This document shows positions 5,187 through 22,454 of a DNA stretch of 22,498 bases, in pieces (within the stretch, counting starts at the first letter, position 1; each line of letters opens with the position of its first letter). The notes under the pieces were generated by a model. That model worked only from the letters and a program-made list of their open reading frames with translations, was not told the origin of the DNA and made no database searches. Location: the IMG/VR virus record IMGVR_UViG_3300043602_000116, positions 1 through 22,498 of that record. One strand, written 5' to 3'. A program made the position numbers and the translations under genes. The DNA comes from a virus.

Positions 5187-7183
5187 TCGATGCCGACAGA
5201 CGGCACGTTGTAGCCGTCTGATCCGGTGTCCTCCCCTGCACCCGTCGTCACTCGTACGTCCGCAGTGCCACCGCCGATGGGTACGCCGTCGATCCGGAAG
5301 TCTCGCGTCTGCGTTCCAGACCAGGTGCCGAAGACTGAGAAGTTCTGCTCCGCTCGACCAGTGAGGGTGATGTAGATGTTGAATCCTTGACCCTTGGGGT
5401 CCAGGTCAACGGACACGATGACGTAGGTGCCCACTCCCAGTTGGTTGTAGCCATCTGCTCGGACTGCTGAGATGTCGGGTGGATCTGCCGGTGGAGGTGG
5501 TGGCGGGTCATCGGGCGGGTCGGGATCGCCAGGCGGTGTTCCACCCTCGCCGTCATCGCCTGAGCCCTCGTCACCTCCAGGATCGGCAGGAGGATCGGCC
5601 TCCGGAACGTCTAGGTTCTGCACCTTCCGCTCCAGCATCTCCTGCCGCCAGCGCAACTCGTTGATGGCCTCACGCCACCGCCTCTCTGGATTCTCGTACG
5701 GCTTGCTACCTGTCTCTGTTTCGACCGAGATGGCACTCGTCCAAGAAACGCCATTTGCGTTGATGGTGAGCGACGCCTCTGTCACCCGTGCCCACTCGCT
5801 CGTCTCCAGAGCCACCACACCTTGTTCCTTGTCCCGAATGGTGAGGCGTACGAAGTCACCCACGTCGAAGTCGCGAAACAGCAGCGGAGCGTCTGGTGAG
5901 GGTGTGATCGTGTACGTCGTAGGAGGCGTGGGTCGGACGTCGGCACGAGCAAATGCCTCCAATAGTGGCACCTCACTCACTTCCGAATACGTCGTCTCAT
6001 CCTCTAGCAGACCGTACTTCGCTTGAGACTCCGCGTCCTGGAACACACCCGTAATCCGCCCACCCGCCTCACTGCTCGAACTAGAGACGTGTCGATTGTG
6101 AGGCAGCATCTCCTGCCGCTCATAGCCGGTGAGGTTGTCGAGCGTACCCGTCCCGAACTCGAACCGCACCTCCGGTCGTGTTATGCCAGCATCTGGCCAC
6201 ATCAGGTCCAGCCGACCAAACTTGTTCGGGATGCCGAACACCGGGTTCACCTTGAAGTAGAAGCCGTCGTACATCGAGCTCAGCTCCTTGAGTATCTCGT
6301 CTTCGCGCTTGCCAGGTTGGTACCGGACGGTACGACCGACCGTGGGTACAGGCGTGAAGGTCAGAGACACCGGGTTGGGCAGCGTGAACAATGGTGTGCC
6401 GTGCTCCGTTGAGGTGCCGTTGTTCGACATAAGGACCGTGCTGCCCGACGGAACATCTAGTACAGTCGTGCCTACGGGAATCCCATCCAGCGGTGCAAAG
6501 ATCGTCATCCCGTCTACAATGTCAGCGGTACCGCCTTCCACTGCAGTGAGTGTCGGTGATCCAGTCGTTACCTGGGCACCCTTGTAGATGCTCGTGTCCA
6601 CCACGTGCGACAGCGTCAGCGATGTTGGCGAGTCGATGGAGACGATCTTCGCTCCTGCTGGCACGCCAGGACCTAGGACGCTGTGACCAACACCCAAGTC
6701 AGCAGTCGTGGACAAGCCAGTAACGGAGGCGGAGCCGTCCGTGAGATTGCCGTTTCGTACAATCGGACTGCCGAGGTCGAACGCTGGAGCCATGAGGAAG
6801 GTCTCTGCAATAGCGTTCTGGACGTTCACTCGATCAATGGCGATGACCTGCGCGTCCTGATTCGTGTACGACTTGAGCACGCGGTTCCGTCTCCACGCGA
6901 ACCCAGCGAATGGGTCACGCACATTCACGACAATCTCGCTACTGGATCGAACCAGGGGTTCCCAGATCTGTCCGTGCAGTCGCAAGACGCCGTCAACGAA
7001 GACCTGTACTGCTCTCTCTGCAACGCGAAGCTGCGAAGAATACGCGTCGAACTTGTGCAGGTGGATCTCACCAGAAGAGAAGTCGCCCAAGCGATGCGTG
7101 AGGACGACCTGATTCCACTGAGACGGGAACCCCATGTTCCTACCCAGCAGGTCAGTCACGACAATCGCGCAGGGATCGGCCAT
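5183..7183 (-). CDS. Tail-tip / minor tail protein, ReqiPepy6 gp37-like
   Basis: The 666-residue protein starts at ATG 7183, which overlaps the previous stop (ATGA). The frame stays open for another 71 residues upstream, but that stretch lies inside the neighbouring gene and is arginine-rich shadow sequence. Residues about 1-140 and 255-520 fit the gp37-like tail protein of actinophages (G-D-F-S-S-G-E-I-H-L, then R-V-A-E-R-A-V-Q-V-F-V-D-G-V-L-R-L-H-G). Two related beta repeats of about 48 residues are inserted at about 145-192 and 207-253, sharing G-S-x-x-x-T, T-A-D, G-x-P-x-G and V-x-S pieces; such modules occur in tail adhesins. An acidic proline/glycine-rich linker spans about 525-570, then a beta-rich C-terminal domain to 666. 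It probably forms the tail tip and contacts the host. Confidence 0.75.
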   Translation of the reverse strand: MADPCAIVVTDLLGRNMGFPSQWNQVVLTHRLGDFSSGEIHLHKFDAYSSQLRVAERAVQVFVDGVLRLHGQIWEPLVRSSSEIVVNVRDPFAGFAWRRNRVLKSYTNQDAQVIAIDRVNVQNAIAETFLMAPAFDLGSPIVRNGNLTDGSASVTGLSTTADLGVGHSVLGPGVPAGAKIVSIDSPTSLTLSHVVDTSIYKGAQVTTGSPTLTAVEGGTADIVDGMTIFAPLDGIPVGTTVLDVPSGSTVLMSNNGTSTEHGTPLFTLPNPVSLTFTPVPTVGRTVRYQPGKREDEILKELSSMYDGFYFKVNPVFGIPNKFGRLDLMWPDAGITRPEVRFEFGTGTLDNLTGYERQEMLPHNRHVSSSSSEAGGRITGVFQDAESQAKYGLLEDETTYSEVSEVPLLEAFARADVRPTPPTTYTITPSPDAPLLFRDFDVGDFVRLTIRDKEQGVVALETSEWARVTEASLTINANGVSWTSAISVETETGSKPYENPERRWREAINELRWRQEMLERKVQNLDVPEADPPADPGGDEGSGDDGEGGTPPGDPDPPDDPPPPPPADPPDISAVRADGYNQLGVGTYVIVSVDLDPKGQGFNIYITLTGRAEQNFSVFGTWSGTQTRDFRIDGVPIGGGTADVRVTTGAGEDTGSDGYNVPSVGIE

Positions 7184-7833
7184 CAGCGGTGCCCGTAGGA
7201 GAAGGGAGCAGACGTCGAGCCGACTGCCGTACCGGTACGTGCGGTTTCGCCCGCGCCCTTGCCTGTCTCGTCCAGCACCTTCATCGTCACGGCGGCCTGG
7301 TCGAGGAACCAGACGCCGTTCGGCGACACGGCCCACCACGGCAAGCGCGAGAAGGCCAGTGCCTCTACCTGCTGATCGGTCATGGCAACAGGCCACACAC
7401 CACAGACAGCGATGTCACCGGCGAAGTGCTGGGTGCCAGCGACTTGGGCACCGATGTTCACGACCGTCATCGTAGTCGCGCTGTCGGCGATGGTAGCGGA
7501 CATGTTCTCGTGCGTCCAGGCACCCGTAGCGTACAGGTAGCGATGTGCCCTTGGCAGCACCGTTCCGGTCGCCTTCGTCACAGCGATGAACTGCCAGTCC
7601 TGTGCCGCCGTGATCGTGAGCGTCGAGTTGACGCCGCGATGCACAAGCCTGTTCGAGGTGTCGAGCGCGAGGTTCCAGCGAACAGTAGCCGTGTCCATGC
7701 CCGCAAGGATGGTCTTCGCTGCTGCGTCTCCACCAGTCTTGTCGATGATTGCCGCGTAGGTACCAAAGGCTACGTTGGTGGCACCGACGCCACAGCTGAT
7801 GAGATCGTCTATGCCGTCGAAGAGTCTCGGCAT
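7183..7833 (-). CDS. LamG/concanavalin-A-like jelly-roll virion protein
   Basis: The 216-residue protein begins M-P-R-L-F-D-G-I-D-D-L-I-S-C-G, the usual opening strand of LamG-type lectin-like domains. It closes that domain with F-A-G-D-I-A-V-C-G-V-W-P-V-A-M-T-D-Q-Q-V at about 138-157. The remaining C-terminal 50 residues (V-W-F-L-D-Q and a G-T-A-V-G-S-T segment ending F-S-Y-G-H-R) match the tail of many actinophage structural proteins of this type. LamG domains bind carbohydrates or proteins, so a receptor-recognition role in the tail tip is likely. ATG overlaps both neighbours by ATGA. It lies between the baseplate-like protein and the gp37-like tail tip. Confidence 0.75.
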   Translation of the reverse strand: MPRLFDGIDDLISCGVGATNVAFGTYAAIIDKTGGDAAAKTILAGMDTATVRWNLALDTSNRLVHRGVNSTLTITAAQDWQFIAVTKATGTVLPRAHRYLYATGAWTHENMSATIADSATTMTVVNIGAQVAGTQHFAGDIAVCGVWPVAMTDQQVEALAFSRLPWWAVSPNGVWFLDQAAVTMKVLDETGKGAGETARTGTAVGSTSAPFSYGHR

Positions 7834-18466: not shown

Positions 18467-19408
18467 TTACGGCGCCTTGAGCACGGCAAACGGGTAGCGC
18501 GAAGCGTCCGTCTGCTGCTCGTAGTTGATTGGGTTGGGAACCTGCCACGCGTACCTCGCCACAACTCGCAGGGCAACCATGTCCTGCTGCGGGAGGTTGT
18601 AGATGATATCTCCAACGTCGTTCTGGATCACTGCCTGGTCAAGGACCTTGTACGTCATGTCTCGACGCACGGCAAGGATCCCCTGGGAGAAGTCACCTGC
18701 GAACAGTTCTGCCGAACCTGAACCAGTGGGCCACATCCCCGGCATGACGTACTGCACGGGCTCGCCCCAGATCGTGTTCGGGATCTGGGAAAGGTCCATG
18801 AGCAACTGCCCGGTTGTGTCCCTGGCACCACGGAGACGCGTCTTGTACGTCGTGCGCGTGACGAATCCATCTACTGCGAACCCGTCAGCCTCAACCAGAC
18901 CCATGACCTGGTTGATATCCTCTGCGATACCACCTGCTGCTGCAGCGTTTGTTCCGCGGTTGTACGTATTGCCCGCTGATGTTGCTGACGTAACAACCTC
19001 CACCGGCCAAGATGATGGCTTGTTCGTGCCGAAGAAGATCGCTGCGTCAAGCGTACGAGCAATTGCTTCCTCCAGAAGCGGACGAATCTCTCCCCACAGG
19101 TCGTATGCTACGTCGTCCAACACCGCTTCCGGAATCGGCACGATAGCAGCAATCTCCTCAGCGAAGAGGAACTTGTTCGCCCACGCTGCTTCTGTCGTCT
19201 GCTTGAGACCCGTGTCCCCGTTAACGAAGTACGCAGTAGGGAGTGCCGCAAGAACCGGCATCCGGTACTGGTTGGAGGACATGGTTACACGGCGGAACAG
19301 AGAAAGCGCTGCTGACTCTGTGCTCACGTTCTTGATGATCTCGTCGGTTACATCCTCAGGGATGAGACCTACGGCATCAGAACGAGAGATCACATTAGTA
19401 TACGCCAT
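18467..19408 (-). CDS. Major capsid protein, HK97 fold
   Basis: The 313-residue protein shows HK97-type capsid features: a short N-arm (S-R-S-D-A-V-G-L-I-P-E-D-V), S-A-A-L-S-L-F-R-R-V at about 32-41, R-M-P-V-L-A-A-L-P at about 49-57, the spine-helix region F-A-E-E-I-A-A-I-V-P-I-P-E-A-V-L-D-D at about 82-99 and I-x-P-x-x-E-E-A-I-A-R-T-L-D-A-A. A late Q-D-M-V-A-L-R-V-V-A-R-Y-A-W sits near 280. The length is about that of mature subunits. No N-terminal delta domain is fused; a separate scaffold gene precedes it. The start has AGGAG, and the TAG of the scaffold gene is fused to it (TAGGAG). Confidence 0.9.
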   Translation of the reverse strand: MAYTNVISRSDAVGLIPEDVTDEIIKNVSTESAALSLFRRVTMSSNQYRMPVLAALPTAYFVNGDTGLKQTTEAAWANKFLFAEEIAAIVPIPEAVLDDVAYDLWGEIRPLLEEAIARTLDAAIFFGTNKPSSWPVEVVTSATSAGNTYNRGTNAAAAGGIAEDINQVMGLVEADGFAVDGFVTRTTYKTRLRGARDTTGQLLMDLSQIPNTIWGEPVQYVMPGMWPTGSGSAELFAGDFSQGILAVRRDMTYKVLDQAVIQNDVGDIIYNLPQQDMVALRVVARYAWQVPNPINYEQQTDASRYPFAVLKAP

Positions 19409-19417
19409 CTCGTTCTC

Positions 19418-19999
19418 CTATCGACCCGACGCTGACCTCAGCATCGAGTTCATGTCTGCTGACTCCTGCTGCCCACCTGAGCGGCCTGCGCCACCATCTG
19501 CTCCAGAAGAGGTGCCAAGAAGATATGGTTTCTCCTTGACCAGAGTTTGCATCGCTGCTTTCACCTGCTCCTCGTCATCCGGGTCCTCGATAGATGACCA
19601 GTCGAGCAAGCGAGCAGCATCTGCGTGAGCCTCACGGACAACTCCGACTTCTGCTGCGACGAGTCGAGCGTGCAACTCCCTGTTTCGCTCCTCCGCCTTG
19701 TCTGCACGGTCCTCTGCTGCCTTTGCTTTGTCACGTGCATTCTCGAACTCCGTCTTCTGGTTGGCCTCGAACCCCGCAACCTTAGCCTGCTCTTCACGCA
19801 GTTGCTTGCGGAACTTCGCTGCCTCAGCATTTGCTCTTGCAAGTTCGCTCCTAGGTACAGTTTCGTCAGTACTCTCACTTGCCTGCCCACCTGGGGCCTC
19901 CGTCTGCTCACCTGGAGCACCTTCGGTTGAACCCCCGTCTTCTCCTGAGCCACCACCTGGGCTTGTCTCAGGATCGTTTAGGATCCACCAATCATGCAT
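19418..19999 (-). CDS. Capsid scaffolding protein
   Basis: The 193-residue protein has an acidic Gly/Ser/Pro-rich N-terminus, a long charged coiled coil at about 50-115 (R-A-N-A-E-A-A-K-F-R-K-Q-L-R-E-E-Q-A-K) and a Gly/Gln/Ser-rich end with M-N-S-M-L-R-S-A-S-G-R. Helical, charged and placed immediately before the capsid gene, it fits phage scaffold proteins that assemble the procapsid and then leave. Start ATG 19999 has AGGAGAG at 5-6 nt. No protease motif is seen in it. Confidence 0.85.
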   Translation of the reverse strand: MHDWWILNDPETSPGGGSGEDGGSTEGAPGEQTEAPGGQASESTDETVPRSELARANAEAAKFRKQLREEQAKVAGFEANQKTEFENARDKAKAAEDRADKAEERNRELHARLVAAEVGVVREAHADAARLLDWSSIEDPDDEEQVKAAMQTLVKEKPYLLGTSSGADGGAGRSGGQQESADMNSMLRSASGR

Positions 20000-20022: not shown

Positions 20023-20055
20023 AGCAGAGTAGGCGTCGCCTTACCCTGCTGTCAA
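20023..20055 (-). promoter_or_regulatory. Hairpin with TTGACA upstream of the scaffold gene
   Basis: A 9-bp stem (AGCAGAGTA 20023-20031 with TACCCTGCT 20042-20050, one G-T pair on the minus strand) is topped by 3 bp, GGC/GCC, with one bulged base and a 3-nt loop. On the minus strand TTGACA (20055-20050) overlaps the upstream stop and could be a -35 box, with a poor TACTCT at 18-nt spacing. It lies in the 52-nt gap before scaffold; whether it acts as promoter, attenuator or processing site is open. Confidence 0.4.
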
Positions 20056-20423
20056 CTTGTTGCCTCTGTTATCTGCCCTGAAAGCATCAGTAGACCTCGT
20101 GCCACGGTCCGCACGCTCGCGTCAGATGCTGCCTTGAACTGAACGTCATAGAGCAACGATTTATCTGCAAGGTTTTCCGTGTCCGCTGGAAGCAACGTGA
20201 CCCTCACCTTGCCCAAAGGCGCATCTGTTACAACGATGCCCACTAGCACTCCGACGTTCAGGCCCTTCTTGATCACTGCGTCAGTGTCGTCGTCTGCTCT
20301 CCTCCTTTTGGCGTAGAACCAAACCTTGTCTGTGCTCGGGGACGCGATTGCCACATCCAGGTCCACATCAAAGAAGTTCGTGTCCCCGCGTTCACACTCC
20401 AGGTTCGTGATCCCTATTGTCAT
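20052..20423 (-). CDS. Ig-like beta-sandwich structural protein
   Basis: The 123-residue protein begins M-T-I-G-I-T-N-L-E-C-E-R-G-D-T-N-F-F-D-V-D-L. It has K-V-W-F-Y-A-K-R-R-R-A at about 33-43, D-A-V-I-K-K-G near 48-54, L-P-A-D-T-E-N-L at about 78-85 and ends G-L-L-M-L-S-G-Q-I-T-E-A-T-S. The rhythm of strand, R-G-D-T, and a late P-A-D-T-x-x-L strand resembles the small sandwich domains in phage upper-baseplate and fibre proteins. Start ATG 20423 overlaps the preceding stop region by 4 nt. It forms a cassette with the two upstream genes. Confidence 0.6.
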   Translation of the reverse strand: MTIGITNLECERGDTNFFDVDLDVAIASPSTDKVWFYAKRRRADDDTDAVIKKGLNVGVLVGIVVTDAPLGKVRVTLLPADTENLADKSLLYDVQFKAASDASVRTVARGLLMLSGQITEATS

Positions 20424-21715
20424 AGGCGCTCCACCTCTCCTTCTACCTCTGCTCTCACGATCACATTCTGCGAATTGACCTTCGCTGCTGATGCCTTGTT
20501 CTTGTTCGCCACAATCACAGCACCTGCCGCGTTCCTAGATACTGCTGCTCCAGCGGCGCTCCTGACAATCGTAGCAGTGGGCGGCACGAACCCGACGATG
20601 AAGATAGTACCTGTGTCTGTGAGCACTATGGTGTCTGCCACTGTTGCTAGGGCAGAGACAAGAGCGTTGTCTGCAATAGCCACCGTGTCGCTGACATAGA
20701 TGGTGATGGCTGTGACCGCTGCTGTGTCAGCAAGGACGATTGAGTCGCCTTGTGCGTGCAAGGCAACGAGGGCCCCTACCTCCACCAGGCCCAGGACGTC
20801 GGAACCCGTTAGAATCGCACTCAAGGCGGCAGTTTCAGCCAACGTGAGGGGTTCTGAGGCAGAAACCGCGGCAACAAGGGATCCTACGTCGCTCAACGCG
20901 AGTGCATCAGTGTCGCTCTTCGTGACGGTGCCTGCAGAGGCAGACCCGTTGTCTGCGAGGACGAACGCGTCCGTGCTCGACAGCAACGCAACGAGTGCTC
21001 CTATATCTGTCAGCGCAAGAGGATCTGAACCTGCGAGTGCAGCGACTAGTGCGCCTGCATCAGCCAGCGCAACACTATCTGTCTGACTGATCGCGGCCCT
21101 GAGGACTCCAGTGTCTGTAAGTGCGAAGGTTTCGCTCCCGAGCAGGAGCGCAGTAAGAGTACCCGTGTCCGTGAGTGCAAGATTCTCTGCGCCTGGCAAC
21201 AGTGCAGCAAGCGCTCCCGCATCAGACAGCGCGAGTGCATCTGTGTCTGCCTTTGACAGGCTGACCGCACCCGTATCTGTCAGGGCAAGGGAATCCGTGC
21301 CTGCTAGGTTCAGCGCCCCTGCATCCGTCAACGTCACGCTGTCAGAGTTCGCAACAAGTACTACGAGAGCACCCGTGTCTGTCAGCGCAATATTATCTGT
21401 GCCTGGGAGTGCTGCTGCCAGTGCCCCTGTGTCAGTCAGAGCGACACTGTCTGTGTTCGCGACCAATGCTGCTAGCGAACCATTATCTGTTAGGCCAACG
21501 CTATCCGTATTCGCGACTACCGCTACCAATGCGCCCGTGTCAGTAAGGACAACACTGTCTGTCGCTGGAATCGCAGCAACCAACGCCCCTATATCTGTAA
21601 GTGCTAGAGAGTCAGTATCTGCCTTGTCTACAGCCCCTGAGTCGAGAGACGACACATAACGGCGCTGGCGCACCGGGCGCGTAGGGCGGTACGGCGGGCG
21701 GTAGACGTAACTCAC
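20420..21715 (-). CDS. Long repeat protein with 19 tandem 18-residue units, probable virion appendage
   Basis: The 431-residue protein (GTG start, GAGG 7 nt upstream) has a basic, Tyr/Pro/Arg-rich N-terminus (Y-R-P-P-Y-R-P-T-R-P-V-R-Q-R-R-Y), then 19 repeats at about residues 34-374 with consensus T-D-S-V-A-L-T-D-T-G-A-L-V-A-L-V-A-x. A C-terminal part follows (I-V-R-S-A-A-G-A-A-V-S-R-N-A-A-G-A-V). Nearly all units are exactly 18 residues, which suits a regular beta-solenoid coil. Units differ from each other, so they are old or diversified. Composition and length suggest a fibrous or surface virion protein. Location before the scaffold gene could point to a head-attached fibre, but this is inference. 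Confidence 0.75.
   Translation of the reverse strand: MSYVYRPPYRPTRPVRQRRYVSSLDSGAVDKADTDSLALTDIGALVAAIPATDSVVLTDTGALVAVVANTDSVGLTDNGSLAALVANTDSVALTDTGALAAALPGTDNIALTDTGALVVLVANSDSVTLTDAGALNLAGTDSLALTDTGAVSLSKADTDALALSDAGALAALLPGAENLALTDTGTLTALLLGSETFALTDTGVLRAAISQTDSVALADAGALVAALAGSDPLALTDIGALVALLSSTDAFVLADNGSASAGTVTKSDTDALALSDVGSLVAAVSASEPLTLAETAALSAILTGSDVLGLVEVGALVALHAQGDSIVLADTAAVTAITIYVSDTVAIADNALVSALATVADTIVLTDTGTIFIVGFVPPTATIVRSAAGAAVSRNAAGAVIVANKNKASAAKVNSQNVIVRAEVEGEVERL
20594..21616 (-). repeat. Protein-level tandem repeat array, 19 units of about 54 bp
   Basis: Inside the long repeat protein, 54-bp units recur with T-D-S-V-A-L-T-D-T-G-A-L as the common core. DNA copies are diverged (different codons for the same residues), unit 6 is shorter (16 residues) and units 13 and 17 are longer. 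It is coding sequence, not CRISPR. Confidence 0.9.
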
Positions 21716-21716
21716 G

Positions 21717-22454
21717 TCAGATCCTCTGGATCATGCGCCGACGTGGAGTGCGGCGCTCGAACAGCGAGGGGGGAGGAGAAGCCGAGGCGGCCGCTGCAGC
21801 GGGATGAATGCCGATGATGAAAGCCGTTCCTCCAATGGCTGCGGCGGCGTGGGTGAATGCAGCGGCATCGTAAGAAATCGTTGTTAGCTGCCTGGACCCA
21901 CCTGCGATGCGACAGTTAGTCGATACTGCCCCACCCGTACCAGAGTCTGCATTGACGACGTTTATATGCGTGCCGTGGGTGAACGTCTGCGTCTCCCCAT
22001 CTAGACCGGCCAGCGCGAGGAATAGATAGTCCTTCGCACCCCCAGTCGGAGAGATGGATGGAGGATTGGCCGCATTAGCAGCAGTTGTAAAGATGCCGTC
22101 AGAAATAGGTAGGTGAATCTCAGGTACTTGTATTGCCGGATCTGCCGCACCTGTGATCACCCAGCCGATAGCCGCGCCCTTGGCTGTTCCTGTGAGATCC
22201 ACAGTGATGGCTGCGGCTTCGACCCCGTAGTGGTAGAAAATGCTCGTGACGTCATCCGTGGCATCAGAGGCATCGTTCGCTAGTAAAGCCGTCCACCCAG
22301 ACGGTGTGTTGAACGCAGACCCACCCCCCGTCCTGCAATACACAAACGCCAGATCAGTAGCCCCCGGAGCAGCGCCCACGGCCACATTGGCCCATGGGTC
22401 TACCGCAGTCGTGAACGTGCTGGTCTGACGAGCGAAGTCAACCGGAGAGGCCAC
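21717..22454 (-). CDS. Beta-sandwich virion protein with basic C-terminus
   Basis: The 245-residue protein (GTG start) is Ala/Gly/Thr-rich with strands such as D-L-A-F-V-Y-C-R-T-G-G-G, T-P-S-G-W-T-A-L-L-A-N at about 50-60, G-W-V-I-T-G-A-A-D-P-A-I-Q at about 97-109 and Y-L-F-L-A-L-A-G-L-D-G-E-T. P-S-G-W-T followed later by an I-x-G-x-x-x-P strand and L-x-L-A-x-A/G is a pattern often found in phage fibre-like proteins of environmental phages. The last 14 residues are basic (F-E-R-R-T-P-R-R-R-M-I-Q-R-I), as is the N-terminus of the following repeat protein. It starts 5 nt after the stop of the upstream gene; its ribosome site is weak. Confidence 0.65.
   Translation of the reverse strand: MASPVDFARQTSTFTTAVDPWANVAVGAAPGATDLAFVYCRTGGGSAFNTPSGWTALLANDASDATDDVTSIFYHYGVEAAAITVDLTGTAKGAAIGWVITGAADPAIQVPEIHLPISDGIFTTAANAANPPSISPTGGAKDYLFLALAGLDGETQTFTHGTHINVVNADSGTGGAVSTNCRIAGGSRQLTTISYDAAAFTHAAAAIGGTAFIIGIHPAAAAASASPPPSLFERRTPRRRMIQRI

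What the first reader, a model, noticed from the sequence alone, without database searches (positions are those of the whole stretch)
20420..21715. Virion-type protein with 19 near-exact 18-residue repeats and basic N-terminus
The T-D-S-V-A-L-T-D-T-G-A-L-V-A-x-V-A-x unit is very regular in length but diverged in DNA, consistent with a selected beta-solenoid or fibre. I do not recognise the family. Its place upstream of the scaffold is unusual for fibres, which are mostly at the tail end.
Basis: seen in the sequence. Interest (0 to 1): 0.65.

Follow-up and report, generated by a model that had tools for sequence, protein, structure and literature searches.

The report
Phage appendage shaft with 18-residue repeats
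A soil-type phage carries, beside its capsid genes, a protein made of 19 copies of an 18-residue beta-strand unit, most likely the shaft of a host-binding fibre; close relatives keep the gene position but swap in unrelated repeats.

Summary
The minus-strand ORF 20420-21715 (431 aa) has 19 units of 18 residues, and 15 of 18 spacings are exactly 18. Length is near-exact but sequence is not: units average 46% amino-acid identity. Synonymous positions are saturated, so the protein pattern was selected. AlphaFold2 gives two beta-strands per unit (pLDDT about 75-83 over the first units), not disorder. No Pfam, NCBIfam or PDB family fits.
Relatives place it. In phages with 66-78% identical capsid protein, the order is portal, variable lectin/hydrolase-like genes, repeat protein, small Ig-like gene, scaffold, capsid. 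All seven relatives with the Ig gene and enough upstream DNA have a repeat protein there, but the repeats differ (18, 19, 20 or 22 residues). In many more distant relatives portal abuts scaffold directly. Related 18-residue repeats form the stalk of mycobacteriophage "minor tail proteins" ending in a glycine-rich domain. In one syntenic relative a domain related to the window's upstream gene is fused to such repeats.
Best reading: a shaft or spacer of a host-binding virion appendage in an exchangeable cassette inserted between portal and scaffold. Whether it sits on capsid, neck or tail is unresolved. New variant of a known kind.

The parts
20420..21715 (-). Repeat (shaft) protein gene, 431 aa, GTG start
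21617..21715 (-). Basic, Pro/Arg/Tyr-rich N-terminal leader, residues 1-33 (mostly pLDDT < 50)
20585..21616 (-). 19 units of about 18 aa (residues 34-377), consensus TDSVALTDTGALVALVAG; two beta strands per unit
20423..20584 (-). C-terminal tail (residues 378-431) with short [AT][TS][IV]x[RK] strand motifs shared, loosely, with syntenic proteins that have unrelated repeats
   Evidence: motif chosen after inspection
20052..20423 (-). 123-aa Ig-like partner (phrog_1084, E=1.9e-10); ATGA overlap with the repeat gene; syntenic in 10 relatives
21717..22454 (-). 245-aa protein; a related domain is fused to the N-terminus of the repeat protein of L127 (E=1.9e-4)
19418..19999 (-). Scaffold protein (PF06810, phrog_2303)
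18467..19408 (-). Major capsid protein, HK97 type (PF05065 E=1.6e-29)

Best explanation
The gene encodes the elongated beta-repeat shaft (spacer) of a host-binding virion appendage. The 18-residue unit folds as two short strands around an Asp-bounded turn. Stacking about 19 units gives a stiff rod that holds a binding head, probably the 245-aa protein encoded just upstream, away from the particle. The C-terminal tail and the small Ig-like protein encoded next are the parts that stay constant when shafts are swapped, so they probably anchor or assemble it. The cassette (binding domains, shaft, Ig protein) is inserted between portal and scaffold and is exchanged among related phages. Shown: the repeat, selection on it, the synteny, the swap of repeat types, repeat homology to annotated minor tail proteins. 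Inferred: virion presence, rod shape, the division into head, shaft and anchor. Unresolved: attachment to capsid, neck or tail (tail or neck slightly favoured).
For: Synonymous saturation with conserved protein pattern. AlphaFold2: regular strand pairs, pLDDT about 75-83 over residues 41-130. Foldseek: no significant PDB match, but the marginal hits are largely beta-solenoids; the best viral hits are mostly uncharacterised phage proteins (E 9.7e-4 and 1.7e-3, probability 1.00). A three-unit profile of the window finds L128 (29.9 bits, best of 20 shuffles 7.2), L125 (26.5 vs 7.8), L127 (16.5 vs 5.9), L080 (23.5 vs 3.0), and prophi91-4 gp73, a minor tail protein (14.6 vs 4.3). L128 repeats hit 38 Mycobacterium phage records; all those listed are annotated minor tail protein, and gp73 ends in a Gly_rich_2 domain. 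Synteny: portal, lectin/GH16/other genes, repeat protein, Ig, scaffold, capsid. A domain related to the 245-aa protein is fused to repeats in L127.
Against: No proteomics or structure of this phage. 'Minor tail protein' in the hits is an annotation, not a tested function. The position beside the scaffold would also suit a capsid protein. Overall model confidence is moderate (mean pLDDT 65, pTM 0.52) and it is a monomer model. The window ends 44 bases past the 245-aa gene, so portal and any further binding genes are inferred from relatives.
Confidence: 0.66

Rival explanations
1. It is specifically a capsid-attached head fibre or decoration, made together with scaffold and capsid and anchored on the shell through the Ig-like protein.
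For: Cassette lies between portal and scaffold in relatives and is immediately followed by scaffold and capsid. The partner has an Ig fold; Ig-like domains on phage heads are common (own knowledge). Capsid fibres that contact the host exist, e.g. in phage 7-7-1 (PMC12796354).
Against: Annotated relatives of the repeat are minor tail proteins beside tail and lysis genes. The Ig protein's second-best profile is an L-shaped tail fibre assembly family (weak, E=0.0012).
Confidence: 0.3
2. It is a trimeric interwoven fibre (triple-beta-spiral type) rather than a monomeric solenoid.
For: Two strands with a Gly-containing turn per about 18 residues, and hydrophobic residues on both faces of the second strand (positions 12-16), which suggests subunit contacts. 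Viral triple beta-spirals need about 17 residues per 15 A step (PMC7565637).
Confidence: 0.3
3. It is not a virion protein but a low-complexity or secreted product whose repeats arose by recent DNA slippage.
For: Some relatives carry neighbouring proteins with signal-peptide-like N-termini (L126 1097-2095, L131 3115-3870).
Against: Synonymous sites saturated, no DNA repeat; tight coupling with late structural genes; repeat proteins kept in position across relatives.
Confidence: 0.06

Closest known systems
Mycobacteriophage minor tail proteins with 18-residue repeats and Gly-rich C-terminal region (prophi91-4 gp73, Taquito gp27, MichelleMyBell gp22, IdentityCrisis gp21)
   Same: Similar repeat length and phase; profile match above shuffles for prophi91-4 gp73 and prophiT36-2b gp41, weak or none for the other three; Pro/Arg-rich leader directly before the repeats.
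   Different: Window protein has 19 rather than about 7-8 units, LxL rather than mostly GxG cores, no Gly-rich head, and lies upstream of the scaffold rather than after the tail genes.
Rhodococcus phage Madraxi gp8
   Same: N-terminal non-repeat domains, 18-residue repeats and a basic C-terminal tail in one chain; lies between minor tail genes and terminase.
   Different: Single polypeptide; next gene is not Ig-like; the window profile matches it only weakly (2.4 bits).
Unnamed [AS]D[ST][IVL][TS]L[ST]D 18-residue repeat proteins of uncultured phages (e.g. L018, L080, L098)
   Same: Same unit phase and Asp positions; L080 23.5 bits vs 3.0 in shuffles.
   Different: Second half of the unit differs; flanking genes are diverse (tape measure, tail fibre, terminase).
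Phage head fibres and decorations beside capsid genes (SPP1 gp12, phi29 gp8.5; own knowledge)
   Same: Gene beside scaffold/capsid; elongated repeat protein.
   Different: Those are collagen-like or helical; here the repeats are beta.

Membership tests
RTX / HemolysinCabind beta-roll | GGxGxDxUx nonapeptides (PF00353) | tested here: not met
   No Pfam hit at E<=1; no GGxGxD in the sequence. Asp pairs recur, and RTX proteins appear among insignificant Foldseek hits.
Left-handed beta-helix (hexapeptide) | [LIV]-[GAED]-x2-[STAV]-x three times per 18 residues | tested here: not met
   Lag 6 and 12 autocorrelation is raised (0.209, 0.19), but only two of three hexads carry the aliphatic residue (position 18 is G/N/A) and the next residue is mostly Thr or Val.
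Triple beta-spiral viral shaft | Homotrimer of two-strand repeats with Gly/Pro turn | tested here: inconclusive
   Two strands and a Gly turn per unit; trimer not testable; no solved homologue.
Mycobacteriophage Gly-rich minor tail protein | Repeat stalk related in sequence | tested here: met
   14.6 bits vs 4.3 best shuffle for prophi91-4 gp73; 9.6 vs 2.1 for prophiT36-2b gp41.
Mycobacteriophage Gly-rich minor tail protein | C-terminal Gly_rich_2 domain (PF21722) | tested here: not met
   Present in gp73, absent from the window protein.
Head fibre / decoration | Located on the capsid of the virion | not testable with these tools
   Only gene position tested.
phrog_1084 (partner gene 20052..20423) | Profile match over most of the length | tested here: met
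   E=1.9e-10, residues 1-122.

The most novel reading that the evidence does not exclude
An unrecognised class of phage appendage: a cassette between portal and scaffold whose shaft is replaced wholesale by unrelated beta-repeats (18, 19, 20, 22 residues) while the C-terminal anchor motif and Ig-like partner stay. The 18-residue Asp-bounded unit would be a widespread, unnamed beta-solenoid of tailed phages, perhaps metal-stabilised, here used as a capsid or neck fibre.
Probability: 0.3. Interest if true: 0.6.

Novelty: new variant of a known kind. Interest (0 to 1): 0.42.

Why it matters
The 18-residue unit recurs in dozens of uncultured phage contigs and in cultured mycobacteriophages, yet neither Pfam nor NCBIfam has a model that fits it. 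The syntenic set gives a natural experiment: phages with closely related capsid proteins keep the Ig partner but exchange the shaft. That makes it possible to test what anchors a fibre and what its shaft must do, and whether phages with this gene order carry fibres on the head or neck.

Tried and rejected
Whole-protein seed search of viral contigs and tblastn against INPHARED with the window protein: nothing, probably because the seeds are too specific and low-complexity filtering is on. Stricter GAL-type DNA patterns: none in viral contigs; one genome match (L124) lies in a helicase-like gene with acidic repeats and is chance. The loose pattern returned many low-complexity frames, discarded by stricter criteria. 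L080 against INPHARED gave only two weak Staphylococcus phage matches. Conserved basic N-terminus as an anchor: rejected, not conserved. phrog_644-like gene of L126/L131 as homologue of the small gene after the mycobacteriophage repeat gene: no match. Madraxi gp9 and IdentityCrisis gp22 as Ig homologues: no. An alignment search for more Ig loci could not run for lack of a conserved stretch. Orsay virus beta-bracelet: strands of five residues plus three-residue loops in a pentamer (PMC7565637), does not fit 18 residues. Long plus-strand ORFs 20700..21086 and 21111..21659 lie antisense to the repeats and were taken as by-products of the repeat codons (not tested further).

Full report
The ORF is as described: 20420-21715 on the minus strand, 431 codons, GTG start with AGAGGA upstream, one base after the stop of the 245-aa gene and overlapping the next gene by ATGA. 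It contains 19 units; 15 of 18 spacings are exactly 18, and lag-18 identity is 0.336 against at most 0.171 in 1000 shuffles. The unit consensus is T-D-S-[VL]-A-L-T-D-T-G-A-L-V-A-L-[VL]-A-G. Asp/Glu at 2 and 8, Leu at 6 and 12, Gly at 10 and Ala at 14 are nearly fixed. Amino-acid identity between units averages 46%. Codon identity at matched residues (28%) is no higher than the codon-usage expectation (30%), so the units are old and held by selection on protein.

The window is a 22.5-kb IMG/VR record of a siphophage: scaffold, HK97-type capsid, head-tail genes, tape measure and Dit lie on the same strand downstream of the repeat gene. Its capsid protein is 49% identical to that of Arthrobacter phages. 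No Pfam, NCBIfam or PDB family covers the repeat protein; one PHROG of unknown function gives a weak hit (E=1.8e-4).

Capsid relatives from viral contigs place the gene. Where the Ig gene is present and upstream DNA is long enough (L125, L126, L127, L128, L131, L146, L147), the gene directly before it always encodes a strongly periodic protein. The main period is 18 (L127, L128), 18-19 (L125), 19 (L147), 20 (L146) or 22 (L126, L131). A profile of three window units recognises the repeats of L125, L127 and L128 well above composition-matched shuffles, L135 and L147 only marginally, and L126, L131 and L146 not at all. L125 and L126 have capsid proteins 84% identical to each other and 78% to the window, yet their repeats are unrelated. 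L135, with 18-residue repeats upstream of its scaffold, has no detectable Ig gene. In L126, L131, L146 and L147 the portal lies 3.9-5.5 kb upstream of the scaffold, with the cassette between. In many relatives without the Ig gene the portal abuts the scaffold (gap under 100 bases, e.g. L133, L136, L145, L161, L204), although others have other genes in the gap. The cassette therefore looks like a lineage-specific insertion. Its other genes include Laminin_G_3 and GH16 proteins, DUF1996, and a near-threshold right-handed beta-helix match, which fit surface binding or glycan processing.

The Ig partner folds confidently (pLDDT 89) as an Ig-like sandwich. It is 33-49% identical to the window's copy across the syntenic set, although the repeat proteins beside it can be unrelated. 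The C-terminal tails of the repeat proteins share short [AT][TS][IV]x[RK] strands: 15 seen against about 2 expected in shuffles over nine proteins, summed. The motif was chosen after inspection and some of the proteins are related, so this is suggestive only. Together they are the best candidates for the anchor.

The 245-aa protein just upstream has a relative, L205 (40% identity), and a weaker one fused to the N-terminus of the L127 repeat protein (E=1.9e-4). Madraxi gp8 has a similar layout of N-terminal domains, repeats and basic tail, but phmmer found no significant similarity between it and the window's 245-aa protein. The fusion in L127 suggests that the 245-aa protein and the repeat protein work in one appendage.

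Beyond the synteny group, a degenerate DNA search for three units spaced 18 residues apart brought in about 45 loci with [AS]D[ST][IVL][TS]L[ST]D-type repeat proteins. They have many different N-terminal domains and neighbours that include tape measure, tail fibre and terminase genes. Among cultured phages, L128-type repeats hit 38 Mycobacterium phage records; every one of those listed is annotated as minor tail protein. prophi91-4 gp73 matches 471 actinophage records, some of them only over the Gly-rich domain.

Structure: the AlphaFold2 model of the window protein, from a 20-row alignment, shows two strands per unit with pLDDT about 75-83 over residues 41-130 and declining later. Foldseek finds nothing significant in the PDB; the marginal hits are largely beta-solenoids (RTX S-layer, calcium antifreeze protein, curli, LpxA). 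The best viral hits are mostly uncharacterised phage proteins. Positions 12-16 are hydrophobic on both faces, which argues for subunit contacts. Solenoid versus interwoven trimer is open.

Verdict: a beta-repeat shaft of a host-binding appendage, in an exchangeable cassette between portal and scaffold. 'Near-exact' holds for length only, and the basic N-terminus is not a family feature.

Noticed in passing
window 7183-7833 (-): Laminin_G_3-like (concanavalin) protein just after the tail-tip genes (E=1.8e-5, slightly below the curated cut-off), so the phage probably also has a lectin-like protein at the distal tail.
   Followed up: partly
L126 1097-2095; L131 3115-3870: Relatives carry a GH16 glycoside hydrolase and a DUF1996 protein, both with signal-peptide-like N-termini, between portal and scaffold.
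   Followed up: partly
L126 3714-4931, L131 4804-5973: 22-residue repeats (NAQPGSYAVTGVAATLARGLFI type); a Manatee Spring podovirus-like genome (MW202742) carries a similar gene just upstream of a gene annotated as major capsid protein.
   Followed up: partly
L146 2636-6052: 1138-aa protein with 20-residue repeats (NTVTSGSLVSGVEAKVLNRA) in the same syntenic position.
   Followed up: no
L128 from 4725; L126 from 3714: Leaders with repeated GWFD motifs in place of the basic leader of the window protein.
   Followed up: no
phrog_5417 genes next to broad-family repeat genes (e.g. L002 4204-4725, L004 4106-4531, L031 5913-6341): A family of unknown function that recurs beside 18-residue repeat genes (14 of 97 neighbours scanned).
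   Followed up: no
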